NCBI GenBank assembly: GCA_012270975.1 | Contig: JAAXHH010000141.1 | Location: 407,089 to 471,088, forward strand | Length of the DNA stretch: 64,000 nucleotides | From: Candidatus Latescibacterota bacterium | GTDB taxonomy: Bacteria; JAAXHH01 | Reading direction: 5' to 3' | In this document: piece after piece, positions 16,026-21,145 of the stretch | Layout: every line of letters starts with the position of its first letter | Numbering within the stretch: position 1 is the first letter of the stretch | Translations under genes and position numbers: made by a program | The notes under the pieces: model-generated | What the model saw: only the letters and a program-made list of their open reading frames with translations | What the model was told of the DNA's origin: nothing | Database searches by the model: none

Positions 16026-17424
<1,399 letters not shown>

Positions 17425-17432
<8 letters not shown>

Positions 17433-18270
17433 GGGTTGGTCCTCTATGTTTATGCCACCAATTCATGTATGCGATGAATTCTGATTTTCGTATCAAGTGA
17501 TGGTGATAGGGTAAATTGGCGTGGCAGGCAATGCACAACGCCTGGAGATTCTCGCTGATGTTATTGTTCTTGTTGCCGTCTTTATGATGAACGTGCAGGT
17601 ATTCTCGTTTATCATGTAGGGAAACATGGCATTCTTCACATCTCCAATTTACTCTCTCCTTATATCCACGGGAGATGTTACTCCAATTAACCGTGTATTC
17701 GTTGGCCGGTGCGGTGACGTTATTGTGAGTTGGTTCAATTCTGATCTGTGAAGTGTATTTTCCAAAGAACTCGCCCAGTGTAAATGACTTAAGAATCCAG
17801 TTCTTGGTCTGCTGGTTGCAATTTGCGAAACCTTTGTAATTCAAGCGTATCAGACAATTCCAACAGATAGACAGTTTTTCATCGACGCCCTTCTCAACAA
17901 TCCGCCCCTGCTCAGTTGAATTGATGGTGAATGTCCCATCGGTCCTGTTTGACACTACATATCTGTCGTATCGATTGTTAAGTCTCATTTGTGTCAACGT
18001 TTTGCAGTCGGCAACATGAAACTTGTATGGTTTGTACTGAACCAACTGATCTCGAATATAAACTACTACTTTACGGCCTTCGTATTCTAAAGTCCCATCT
18101 CCTGCTACGGCTAATTCTTCTGGCGCAATGTCATGGCCGGTTGTTACCAGTATTTCGTCAATATCAATGGAATTCCAGATCCCGCTCTCGCTCCAGTCTA
18201 CCAGTTGAGCGTTCATCCGTCTTCTTAATTGGTTGAACAAATCATGCTGCTTGAAATCAGGTAGTCTCAT
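17425..18270 (-). CDS. zorE: HNH endonuclease, ZorE-like effector of a Zorya type II-like system
   Basis: Protein of 281 residues with a C-terminal HNH nuclease domain. A CxxC zinc pair (211, 214), His228-His229 with KDG, Asn241, and a second CxxC followed by His250 reproduce the HNH zinc-finger pattern. A further CWNC pair lies near the middle (after LSI), hinting at a second small metal site. The N-terminal 200 residues are not recognised and may bind DNA. It follows the MotB-like gene by 5 nt, as ZorE follows ZorB in type II Zorya, where it acts as the DNA-cutting or nicking effector. Line 17641-17700 is only 24/60 G+C, against 41/60 in the next gene (16501-16560), which suggests transfer. 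Confidence 0.75.
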
Positions 18271-18275
18271 GATCC

Positions 18276-19004
18276 CTATTCTTGATTCACGATAATATCG
18301 ATTCGTTTTTCCGCGTTAGTCTGTACCCTGAATTCCACTCTTCTGGATTTTACTCTGTCTTCTCTGCCTTCACTGCCCTCTACAAACAGCAGTTGGCTTG
18401 AAGACAGACCGTTCGCGGTCAACACCCTTTTGATCCAATTTCTATCCTGTTGCTCAATCGAAGGCATTTGCAACACAAACTCTAGTACGCTTCGAGTCCT
18501 TCCCTGCGAAAGTTCCATATTCAGGATATAGGCTTCGTCAGGCCCTACTCCGGTAATCCACTCACTGGATGTATGGCCCTCTATTCTTATCTCCGTGATT
18601 TCGCCTTTAAATAGCTTTAAAACTTCCAGATAACGTGGAAAGAACTCGTTCAGAATATCCTGAAAATACGGACGTAGTTTGGCCTCGCCTTGCCCGAACA
18701 ACACATTCAACTGATTAGCCCTGAACTGAATTGAAAGTGTTGTATCGACCAGTTCAGCATTCCACTTTTCGAAGTCGTACTTGAATTCATTATTGAGGCT
18801 GTCTATCAATGCGGACTGCAACTGGTTATAAGTAAGGGCGATCTGTTCAATCTTGTCTTTTTCAGATCGGACATATAGCATGTAACTTATTGCAATAAAG
18901 AGAAATATCACCATCAGACCGGCCATCATGTCCGAGATCGAAATCCATGTCTCTTCGGTGTCTTTCTGGCTTGTCGGGGTCAGTTCCATGGTCAATGCAT
19001 CCAT
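18276..19004 (-). CDS. zorB: ZorB-like MotB/OmpA-domain stator protein
   Basis: Protein of 242 residues with the stator-unit B architecture: a short cytoplasmic start, one membrane helix (about 28-45) and a periplasmic OmpA-like peptidoglycan-binding domain. Asp25 in the SDMMAGLM context sits at the position of the proton-binding Asp of MotB. The OmpA domain is marked by IEGHTSS (141-147), LSQGRTRSV (165-173) and a final RRVEFRV strand. The start overlaps the upstream MotA-like gene's stop as TAATG. Absence of flagellar genes and the HNH neighbour favour ZorB over MotB; TolR/ExbD-type proteins lack this OmpA domain. Confidence 0.82.
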   Translation of the reverse strand: MDALTMELTPTSQKDTEETWISISDMMAGLMVIFLFIAISYMLYVRSEKDKIEQIALTYNQLQSALIDSLNNEFKYDFEKWNAELVDTTLSIQFRANQLNVLFGQGEAKLRPYFQDILNEFFPRYLEVLKLFKGEITEIRIEGHTSSEWITGVGPDEAYILNMELSQGRTRSVLEFVLQMPSIEQQDRNWIKRVLTANGLSSSQLLFVEGSEGREDRVKSRRVEFRVQTNAEKRIDIIVNQE

Positions 19005-20338
19005 TAACGATCGGGTGTTGAACGAGAATTACTCGGCAAGCCGTCTGCCAATCTCACAACCTCGCGGAGCCTTGATGTAAGGGGACCGTAATCCTCGACA
19101 AACTTGGTCGAGAGGCTTGCGAGTTGGTTACCCATCGAGTTGATCGACTCTGTAAGCGCATTCTCCAACGCCTTGTCCAATACACTGATTTGTTGAGCAA
19201 TCTGTCGTGTGCTTTCCGTGAAGACTCTCTCAGACTCCGCGGTCAGTTTGGTGTTCGTATCATTAATCAGTTTTTCAAACTGCTCGTGGGTCTTTTGTAC
19301 TAACTCATCGAATTGCGCGGCATGTCGATCAAGTACGCGTCGCTGGTTCTTTACATCTTCCTGAGAGCTGTTTATGGTATCCAACGCGGCTTCAGAAAAC
19401 TCGCTAGTCAGTTTATCAAGGCGTTCTTCGATAAGGGGAAAAGCGACACGGGCGTTCTCACTAAGTGAGTTGAACGCTTCCACCCGATCGTTCATTGAAA
19501 TCAACTGTTCCTGAAGCGTTTGAAGAACGGGTTCCAGGTGCTTTGCGGTGGCAACAAATACATCGGACTGCTCGGTGATTGTTTCCAATGATTGACGCGA
19601 TTTATCCATGCTCTCCATTGCGACTTCAATTACGCGAGCCAGGTCATTCATCTGTAACCGGTAATGATCCTGCCAGTCATTAACGCGGCCAATGGCTTCA
19701 TTCAGGTGCTTGAAGTTGTCCCCGAATTGCTCATTTATCTTCGTGTTAAAATCCCGCATGACTGATTCGAGTGCTTCTATCAAAGCGTTGGTATTGTCTT
19801 CGGCTACTTGATTTGAAAACGCCGTTATGGCCTGAACGACTTCATCCTGTTTATCTACGAAGCTCGTTCGAAGTTTTTGCAACTGAGTAAGCACAGTGCT
19901 TTCACCATCTCCGGTTAATGCAGCCTCCATTGATTTCATGGTCTCTTTGTTTTCATTCGTGGCGGTCTGTATTGCATTTAGGATATCCACCAAGGTTGTC
20001 TCCAAATCGTCGACTGTCGCTCCGACAACAGGCTGAGATTCATCCGAATCCGCTCTTTTCTTCATTTTGTACAATTCGGCCAGCTTTATGACAACTGACG
20101 CAAATATCCCGCAAATGGAAGTCAAGAACGCGAACATCAACCCGTCGAGTAATTCGGGTATGCTTTCGTCAGGATTAGCGGGGTTGAAATGCGCAAGTCC
20201 CCATGCTATTCCACAGAAAGTTCCAAGCACTCCGATCACAGTTACGAGGGAGGCCGTGGAGTTTACGTGTTTCCTGAAAACAAAGACCACCAGGATAATC
20301 GCGACGACGAATATGGATATTATCACATAAGTGCTCAT
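19004..20338 (-). CDS. zorA: ZorA-like MotA/TolQ-family stator with long helical tail
   Basis: Protein of 444 residues. Three membrane helices (about 3-22, 30-51, 65-90) contain the MotA/TolQ/ExbB-type signature GVLGTFCGIAWGL and the third-helix FLTSICGIFASVV. They are followed by roughly 340 residues of charged, heptad-rich sequence. That long cytoplasmic coiled tail is the feature separating ZorA from MotA (about 290 residues) and ExbB. In Zorya, ZorA5-ZorB2 is a proton-driven motor whose tail transmits the infection signal. A GGGAG ribosome binding site lies 9 nt before the ATG. One line of this gene (19621-19680) is 29/60 G+C, lower than adjoining genes. Confidence 0.82.
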   Translation of the reverse strand: MSTYVIISIFVVAIILVVFVFRKHVNSTASLVTVIGVLGTFCGIAWGLAHFNPANPDESIPELLDGLMFAFLTSICGIFASVVIKLAELYKMKKRADSDESQPVVGATVDDLETTLVDILNAIQTATNENKETMKSMEAALTGDGESTVLTQLQKLRTSFVDKQDEVVQAITAFSNQVAEDNTNALIEALESVMRDFNTKINEQFGDNFKHLNEAIGRVNDWQDHYRLQMNDLARVIEVAMESMDKSRQSLETITEQSDVFVATAKHLEPVLQTLQEQLISMNDRVEAFNSLSENARVAFPLIEERLDKLTSEFSEAALDTINSSQEDVKNQRRVLDRHAAQFDELVQKTHEQFEKLINDTNTKLTAESERVFTESTRQIAQQISVLDKALENALTESINSMGNQLASLSTKFVEDYGPLTSRLREVVRLADGLPSNSRSTPDR

Positions 20339-20392
20339 CCGGATTTACTCCCACGTTCCTTCATTGAGACTACATCGATAAACCGCTACATT

Positions 20393-21145
20393 CTACTCCG
20401 GCATGAAAAACTCGTACCGGTCCGGGTCGCCGTAGCCGTCGACCCAGGTTTCCTTCAATCCCTGGTTCTCCACGGCGGCCTTTACGATGAGCTTATTGAA
20501 CTGGCTTACGTTCTCCGAACCCATGTAGGTCTCCACGGGCATCCAGAAACACTCTTCAATTTCCGTGGCCTGCATCTCGATGATCTGGTGGAGGGGCTTC
20601 AGGCGACAGACGAAGTAAATATCGGACTTGTCGTAGCGGTAACCGTGCCAGTGCCGGAAACAGACCAGGCCATCGAAGCGGGTCGGCACACCCGTTTCCT
20701 CGAATACTTCGCGGACGACGCCTTCGGCCAGGTGCTCCTCCGGCTGCAGCGCTCCGCCGGGCAGCTTGTAGTACGGCGCGCGGCCCCCGCGAAACCGTTC
20801 ACAGACCACCAGCAGTTCGTTCTTCTCGTTGATCACCACGCCGCCGGCGCCGATGTAATGGGTCGCGTAGAGCGGTACGAAGGCGCCTTCGGCCAGGCGA
20901 AGCGTCAGCATCAGGTAGTCGGTGGTACTGTGGTGAAATACACTTCCCGCGTCCACCAGGGCGGGAATGAGAAAGGCACGGGTCAGGGGGACTTTAAACC
21001 AGGCGACCTGCAGTCCCTCTTCCTTCCAGGATCGGATCGAATGGTCGAGGCGCCCCTTGAAGCCGTCGGCCGTATCCGGCAGGGCGTCCGAACCGACTTC
21101 CACGCCGTGGAAACGGTTGCGCTCCCCCTCGATCATCTTTGACAT
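20393..21145 (-). CDS. Nudix hydrolase with N-terminal pre-Nudix domain (NUDT6/plant-type)
   Basis: Protein of 250 residues. The Nudix box is complete (residues 131-153: G-x5-E-x7-REVFEETGV). The preceding 95 residues, with WFKVPLTRAFLIPALVDAG and HHSTTDYLML, resemble the pre-Nudix domain of NUDT6 and plant Nudix proteins rather than MutT. Substrates of this branch include NADH and ADP-ribose type dinucleotides, so a housekeeping nucleotide-cleaning role is likely. It lies 31 nt after pepF and 54 nt before the Zorya genes. Its codon use matches the high-GC neighbours, so I do not count it as part of the defence cassette. Confidence 0.85.
   Translation of the reverse strand: MSKMIEGERNRFHGVEVGSDALPDTADGFKGRLDHSIRSWKEEGLQVAWFKVPLTRAFLIPALVDAGSVFHHSTTDYLMLTLRLAEGAFVPLYATHYIGAGGVVINEKNELLVVCERFRGGRAPYYKLPGGALQPEEHLAEGVVREVFEETGVPTRFDGLVCFRHWHGYRYDKSDIYFVCRLKPLHQIIEMQATEIEECFWMPVETYMGSENVSQFNKLIVKAAVENQGLKETWVDGYGDPDRYEFFMPE

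What the first reader, a model, noticed from the sequence alone, without database searches (positions are those of the whole stretch)
17425..20338. Zorya type II-like defence cassette (zorA-zorB-HNH)
Seen: three tightly packed genes (1-nt overlap, then a 5-nt gap) encode a MotA/TolQ-type protein with about 340 residues of coiled tail, a MotB-like protein with Asp25 and an OmpA domain, and an HNH nuclease. Line 17641-17700 is 24/60 G+C versus 41/60 for 16501-16560 in the next gene. Known: type II Zorya consists of ZorA, ZorB and the HNH effector ZorE, and ZorAB is a proton-driven stator. Inference: this is a horizontally acquired type II or variant Zorya system, in a lineage where such systems seem sparsely described. 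The 200-residue N-terminal part of the HNH protein and its extra CxxC are not recognised.
Basis: partly seen in the sequence, partly recalled or inferred. Interest (0 to 1): 0.85.

Follow-up and report, generated by a model that had tools for sequence, protein, structure and literature searches.

The report
Type II Zorya anti-phage defence cassette
Three neighbouring genes encode a known kind of bacterial anti-virus system, a membrane motor that switches on a DNA-nicking enzyme, which has been slotted between two ordinary genes at a spot where sister species carry nothing or a different suspected defence cassette.

Summary
The finding is right. Window 17425-20338 (minus strand) is a complete type II Zorya operon, zorA-zorB-zorE. 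Each protein hits its own type II PADLOC family best (E 1e-100, 2e-89, 3e-75); MotA and MotB models are far weaker. The closest solved complex is the type II ZorAB of Sulfuricurvum kujiense (8VVI). The ion-carrying Asp (D25), three of four tested peptidoglycan contacts and the whole HNH core are present. The 'unrecognised' N-terminus of the HNH protein is ZorE's DUF8245 domain; its extra CxxC completes an H85/C89/C136/C139 putative zinc site, invariant in 99 ZorE relatives. This ZorE is the short form (281 aa), without the C-terminal nuclease-like extension of E. coli-type ZorE. Acquisition is shown by comparison: eight congeners have an empty ~40-60 bp site between the same nudix and sulfatase genes; one has a different low-GC cassette there (methyltransferase, unknown protein, HerA-like ATPase); two others share zorE at the site. 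zorE differs more between the two complete copies than zorAB or the flanks. This is a new member of a known system. Less ordinary: a nuclease-free ZorAB-DUF8245 clade in marine Gammaproteobacteria, and a defence-swapping site. Anti-phage activity here is inferred, not shown.

The parts
19004..20338 (-). zorA (type II), 444 aa: MotA/ExbB-type three-TM core (GTF motif T40, T73/S74) and ~350-residue cytoplasmic coiled tail
   Evidence: PADLOC ZorA2 E 8.7e-100 against ZorA1 E 1.7e-14 at best; PDB 8VVI ZorA E 1.8e-54; alignment
18276..19004 (-). zorB (type II), 242 aa: single TM with D25, OmpA peptidoglycan-binding domain (H144, S146, R221)
   Evidence: PADLOC ZorB2 E 1.7e-89; NCBIfam ZorB2 E 3.8e-69, below its curated cut-off; Pfam OmpA above cut-off; 8VVI ZorB E 3.2e-42; residue map
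17425..18270 (-). zorE, short form, 281 aa: N-terminal DUF8245-type region with putative Zn site H85/C89/C136/C139, then HNH domain C211/C214/H226/H228/H229/N237/N241/C246/C249/H250
   Evidence: PADLOC ZorE2 E 2.9e-75; AlphaFold2 model mean pLDDT 87.3
17425..17448 (-). right insertion border: zorE's last codons and stop run into conserved host sequence ahead of the sulfatase start (GAGGACCAACCCATGGCTAA)
   Evidence: comparison with empty sites; the same fusion in G011 and G009
20339..20393 (-). left insertion border: nudix stop to zorA start; conserved homology to empty sites ends at the nudix stop (20393), extending to 20384-20385 in two genomes
20393..21145 (-). flanking host gene, nudix hydrolase (not part of the system)
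   Evidence: Pfam Nudix_hydro and NUDIX
16026..17432 (-). flanking host gene, sulfatase, present in all 12 genus members (not part of the system)
   Evidence: Pfam Sulfatase E 6e-52

Best explanation
A complete type II Zorya anti-phage system, horizontally acquired at a site between a nudix and a sulfatase gene. Five ZorA and two ZorB form an inner-membrane ion-driven motor with a long cytoplasmic ZorA rod. ZorB's OmpA domain grips peptidoglycan and senses its disturbance at phage entry. Ion flow through D25 and the ZorA Thr/Ser ring turns or rearranges the rod, which recruits ZorE, so that ZorE nicks DNA near the entry site and stops the infection. Shown here: gene content, order, key residues, foreign origin, purifying selection. 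Inferred from characterised relatives (PMC11890865, PMC13192584): 5:2 assembly, sensing, recruitment, nicking.
For: All three genes hit type II PADLOC families best, over nearly full length. Closest solved relatives are both chains of 8VVI. D25, H144, S146 and R221 match E. coli ZorB D24, H141, S143 and R215, reported essential in PMC11890865. ZorE H85, Y192, H229 and K234 match H90, Y189, H226 and K231, whose mutation abolishes defence in PMC13192584. dN/dS between G000 and G011 is about 0.11 (zorA), 0.16 (zorB) and 0.22 (zorE), so all three are kept functional. Empty sites in eight congeners. No MotB_plug in the genus.
Against: No activity was measured. All three fall below NCBIfam's equivalog cut-offs (154/700, 233/400, 177/600 bits), which seem set for close relatives of the E. 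coli proteins. The position of E. coli ZorB R230, also reported essential, is D236 here, though it varies among relatives. The characterised type II ZorE is a long form; no short-form ZorE was found to have been tested. The host is a draft genome, so its own biology is unexamined.
Confidence: 0.92

Rival explanations
1. The pair is a flagellar, gliding or Ton/Tol-type stator and the HNH gene is an unrelated neighbour.
For: ZorA and ZorB are distant homologues of MotA/ExbB and MotB.
Against: MotA_ExbB is below cut-off (17.7 bits); MotB models reach 39 bits against 298 for PADLOC ZorB2. The genus has no MotB_plug match. The host has two separate ordinary ExbB/TolQ-type proteins. The third gene is ZorE by profile and follows ZorAB in most relatives.
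Confidence: 0.02
2. A ZorAB-type system kept for a non-defence job (for example an envelope sensor), as may hold for the nuclease-free ZorAB-DUF8245 loci of marine Gammaproteobacteria.
For: Related ZorAB occur with a DUF8245 protein lacking HNH, in partly shared chromosomal neighbourhoods, so not every ZorAB relative need be defensive.
Against: The window's ZorE keeps every catalytic HNH residue. The cassette is patchily present, foreign in composition, and replaced in a sister species by another probable defence cassette, the distribution of a defence system.
Confidence: 0.04
3. A decaying, inactive Zorya remnant.
For: Present in only 3 of 12 genus members.
Against: All reading frames are intact with tight spacing; key residues are kept; dN/dS is well below 1 for all three genes.
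Confidence: 0.03

Closest known systems
Type II Zorya of Sulfuricurvum kujiense (ZorAB structure 8VVI; PMC11890865)
   Same: ZorA and ZorB align over most of their length; same Asp; short ZorA (378 there, 444 here).
   Different: ZorA tail is longer here; sequence identity is moderate.
Type II Zorya of E. coli with long ZorE (PMC11890865, PMC13192584; plasmid copy NZ_CP127005 read here)
   Same: Same three genes and order; essential ZorB and ZorE residues largely conserved.
   Different: ZorE 281 versus 367 aa: the C-terminal nuclease-like extension linked to Druantia III is absent. E99 and H235, needed for Druantia synergy against phage Bas37, are Q94 and I238 here. ZorE identity is about 37%.
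Short-form Zorya II loci in Latescibacterota (L050), Poribacteria (L099) and a Burkholderia multivorans replicon (L045)
   Same: Short ZorE with an M-x-L-P-[DN]-F type N-terminus and a full HNH; L050 is the nearest ZorB outside the genus (58% identity).
   Different: Different hosts and genomic sites; L099 has a second, tandem ZorAB pair.
Type I and type III Zorya
   Same: ZorAB motor core.
   Different: No zorC/zorD or zorF/zorG; type I and III profiles score far lower.

Membership tests
Zorya type II | ZorA: MotA/ExbB-type membrane core with long cytoplasmic tail, closest to type II profiles | tested here: met
   PADLOC ZorA2 E 8.7e-100, next type I 1.7e-14; 8VVI; three hydrophobic segments and tail
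Zorya type II | ZorB: single TM with ion-carrying Asp and OmpA-type peptidoglycan-binding domain | tested here: met
   D25; OmpA above Pfam cut-off; H144, S146 and R221 conserved, R230 equivalent is D236
Zorya type II | ZorE with HNH nuclease core | tested here: met
   PADLOC ZorE2 E 2.9e-75; HNH and zinc residues all present
Zorya type II | Gene order zorA-zorB-zorE as one tight operon | tested here: met
   1-nt overlap and 5-nt gap; same order in relatives
Zorya type II | NCBIfam equivalog cut-offs for ZorA2, ZorB2, ZorE | tested here: inconclusive
   The ZorA2, ZorB2 and ZorE models are each the best NCBIfam match but fall below the strict cut-offs, which appear set for the E. coli-like subset; not a definition of the system
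Zorya type II | Anti-phage activity depending on ion flow and on the nuclease | not testable with these tools
   Needs plaque assays with D25N and H229A mutants
Druantia-associated long-form ZorE | C-terminal nuclease-like extension after the HNH | tested here: not met
   ZorE ends at 281 aa, just after the HNH domain; a search of the genome with E. coli DruH found nothing, without a positive control
MotAB flagellar stator | MotB plug domain or MotA above cut-off, in a flagellated host | tested here: not met
   No MotB_plug match in 11 genus members, while controls match; MotA_ExbB below cut-off
Zorya type I / III | zorC and zorD, or zorF and zorG, beside zorAB | tested here: not met
   Neighbours are nudix and sulfatase genes

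The most novel reading that the evidence does not exclude
DUF8245, the N-terminal zinc domain of ZorE, is the coupling module that reads the ZorAB motor, and the nuclease is an exchangeable add-on. In this genus the effector evolves faster than the motor (zorE 72% against zorAB 90-93% identity at a shared site), while a sister clade of ZorAB in marine Gammaproteobacteria keeps DUF8245 with no nuclease and a stable chromosomal position, implying a ZorAB function that is not DNA cleavage.
Probability: 0.3. Interest if true: 0.6.

Novelty: new member of a known kind. Interest (0 to 1): 0.33.

Why it matters
It adds a short-form type II Zorya in a lineage apart from the Gammaproteobacteria and Campylobacterota where the type is best described, with a clean picture of how it was acquired: same flanks, same site, present, absent or replaced by another suspected defence cassette among sister species. 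It also settles what the 'unknown' N-terminal half of this HNH protein is, and points to the DUF8245 domain as the likely coupling part between motor and effector, which mutagenesis can test.

Tried and rejected
MotAB/TolQR reading: rejected by profiles and genome context. Pfam for the N-terminal domain of ZorE: no hit in the local copy, also not for E. coli ZorE; the name DUF8245 comes from PMC13192584. Fold search of the ZorE model against PDB: no match at E <= 0.001; weak matches to McrA, Cap5 and other HNH proteins and to DotN, none that identifies the N-terminal domain. Phages: no ZorE match in 50,697 records. Plasmids: ZorE relatives only below 60% identity, no DNA-level match. Promoter and terminator scan: no more than chance. 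Repeats at the borders: only short imperfect matches and no clear target-site duplication. A first HNH regex wrongly flagged 25 ZorE as HNH-less; the alignment corrected this. Organism name: not obtained; the own record is left out of the named collections.

Full report
Observation. The cassette is 45.1% G+C; stretches of equal length elsewhere in the window average 61.2% with a minimum of 54.6%, and the lowest-G+C stretch of the window lies at the cassette. GC at third positions is ~0.5 against 0.80-0.86 in the flanking genes.

Identity. Against PADLOC each protein finds its type II Zorya family first by a wide margin: ZorA2 8.7e-100 (best type I 1.7e-14), ZorB2 1.7e-89, ZorE2 2.9e-75 over nearly the full length. 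NCBIfam ranks the ZorA2, ZorB2 and ZorE models first, though below their strict equivalog cut-offs. The nearest solved structure is the S. kujiense type II ZorAB complex 8VVI for both subunits. MotA_ExbB is below Pfam's cut-off, no MotB_plug is found in the genus although the control genomes respond, and the genome has two other, ordinary MotA/ExbB-type proteins. So the pair is not a flagellar or Ton/Tol stator.

Key residues. Mapping the residues reported essential in PMC11890865 gives D24 to D25, H141 to H144, S143 to S146 and R215 to R221; R230 maps to D236, a position that varies among relatives. Mapping those of PMC13192584 onto ZorE gives H90 to H85, Y189 to Y192, H226 to H229, K231 to K234, N234 to N237, N238/L239 to N241/L242, and H247/H253 to H250/H256, all kept. 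[quoted passage not shown]

The 'unrecognised' N-terminal part. [quoted passage not shown] In an alignment of 99 ZorE relatives the residues H85, C89, C136 and C139 are invariant, including in 16 proteins with no HNH domain. The window's ZorE is the short form: it ends just after the HNH. An AlphaFold2 model from 61 homologues is confident (mean pLDDT 87.3), but no solved structure resembles the N-terminal domain.

Acquisition. All 12 genus members carry the sulfatase gene. In eight (G001-G005, G007, G008, G010) the nudix stop and the sulfatase start are separated by only about 40-60 bp. G011 carries the whole cassette at the same place. G009 carries at least the end of zorE there, its contig ending inside the gene. 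G006 carries a different low-GC insert at the same place: an N6/N4-type DNA methyltransferase, a 387-aa protein without a family, and a HerA-like ATPase. The right border is neat: zorE's last codons and stop lie in host sequence that in empty-site genomes is the leader and start of the sulfatase. No integrase, transposase, tRNA gene or clear target duplication was seen at this site. The nudix gene tree joins the window and G011 with strong support while the other flank does not resolve them, which fits spread by homologous recombination through the flanks (inference).

Selection. Between the two complete copies dN/dS is 0.11 (zorA), 0.16 (zorB) and 0.22 (zorE), so all are maintained. zorE is 72% identical at protein level against 90% (zorA) and 93% (zorB); nucleotide identity falls to ~0.72 within zorE but is 0.83-0.95 across zorAB and 0.84-0.97 in the flanks. 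Its dS is also raised (0.78), so allele replacement is at least as likely as rapid change.

Mechanism. Published work on relatives shows a ZorA5-ZorB2 ion-driven motor with a cytoplasmic ZorA rod, a need for peptidoglycan binding by ZorB and for the Asp, and a ZorE nickase recruited to the membrane on infection (PMC11890865). Given the conserved parts, the same scheme is the best explanation here; every step in this organism is inferred.

Wider family. A scan of 84,980 species genomes returned 490 ZorB relatives, 80 of them kept; 18 viral contigs also hold one. Named phages hold no ZorE match and 16 plasmid records do. The window's ZorB groups with G011 only; the nearest named relative is a Latescibacterota contig (58%, L050), and the deeper placement is unresolved. 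In the same tree 13 loci from marine Gammaproteobacteria form one supported clade in which the third gene is DUF8245 alone with no HNH. Several of these share gene neighbourhoods across genera: BolA and rhodanese genes downstream, oxaloacetate decarboxylase genes upstream, or a thioredoxin-reductase gene upstream (names partly from my own reading of the sequences). That looks like vertical inheritance, not a mobile defence gene. PMC13192584 set aside ZorE variants without a recognisable endonuclease domain; I found no paper that studies them.

Verdict. A correct first reading; a new member of a known system. Interest is modest for the cassette itself, a little higher for the defence-swapping site and the nuclease-free relatives.

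Noticed in passing
L026:557-5187 (genome G006, same nudix/sulfatase site): A different low-GC three-gene insert at the very site that holds Zorya in the window: N6/N4 DNA methyltransferase (435 aa), a 387-aa protein with no Pfam, PADLOC or NCBIfam match (it sits where HerA's usual partner nuclease NurA would be), and a HerA-like ATPase (719 aa). Probably an undescribed or poorly described defence cassette.
   Followed up: partly
L096, L098, L101, L104, L105, L108, L112, L113, L115, L116, L121, L125, L085 (also L055, L110, L052): ZorAB operons whose third gene is the ZorE N-terminal (DUF8245) domain alone, ~155-200 aa, zinc residues kept, no HNH. Thirteen form one ZorB clade in Oceanospirillaceae, Saccharospirillaceae and Cellvibrionaceae with partly shared gene neighbourhoods; one PADLOC ZorE model is only 162 aa long and may lump them with ZorE.
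   Followed up: partly
L047:1463-8199 (genome G199; also L099, Candidatus Poribacteria): Two ZorAB pairs in tandem. The first has a normal short ZorE and a zorA that appears split by a frameshift; the second pair is in reversed order (zorB-zorA) and is followed by an ORF that starts like ZorE (MKLPDFGQNRRFASLRKRME) but continues without an HNH.
   Followed up: partly
L007:4368-6624 (G022) and L008:4806-8224 (G056): ZorAB pairs related to type II with no ZorE gene next to them; the ZorA of G056 is 890 aa long.
   Followed up: no
window 17425-18270 versus L006:11516-12361: zorE differs much more between the two species (72% aa, dS 0.78) than zorA, zorB (90-93% aa, dS 0.19-0.45) or the flanking genes: fast effector turnover or allele exchange.
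   Followed up: partly
window 17425-17432: zorE stop and sulfatase start overlap by 8 nt; zorE's final codons are borrowed from the host's sulfatase leader, also in G011 and G009.
   Followed up: yes
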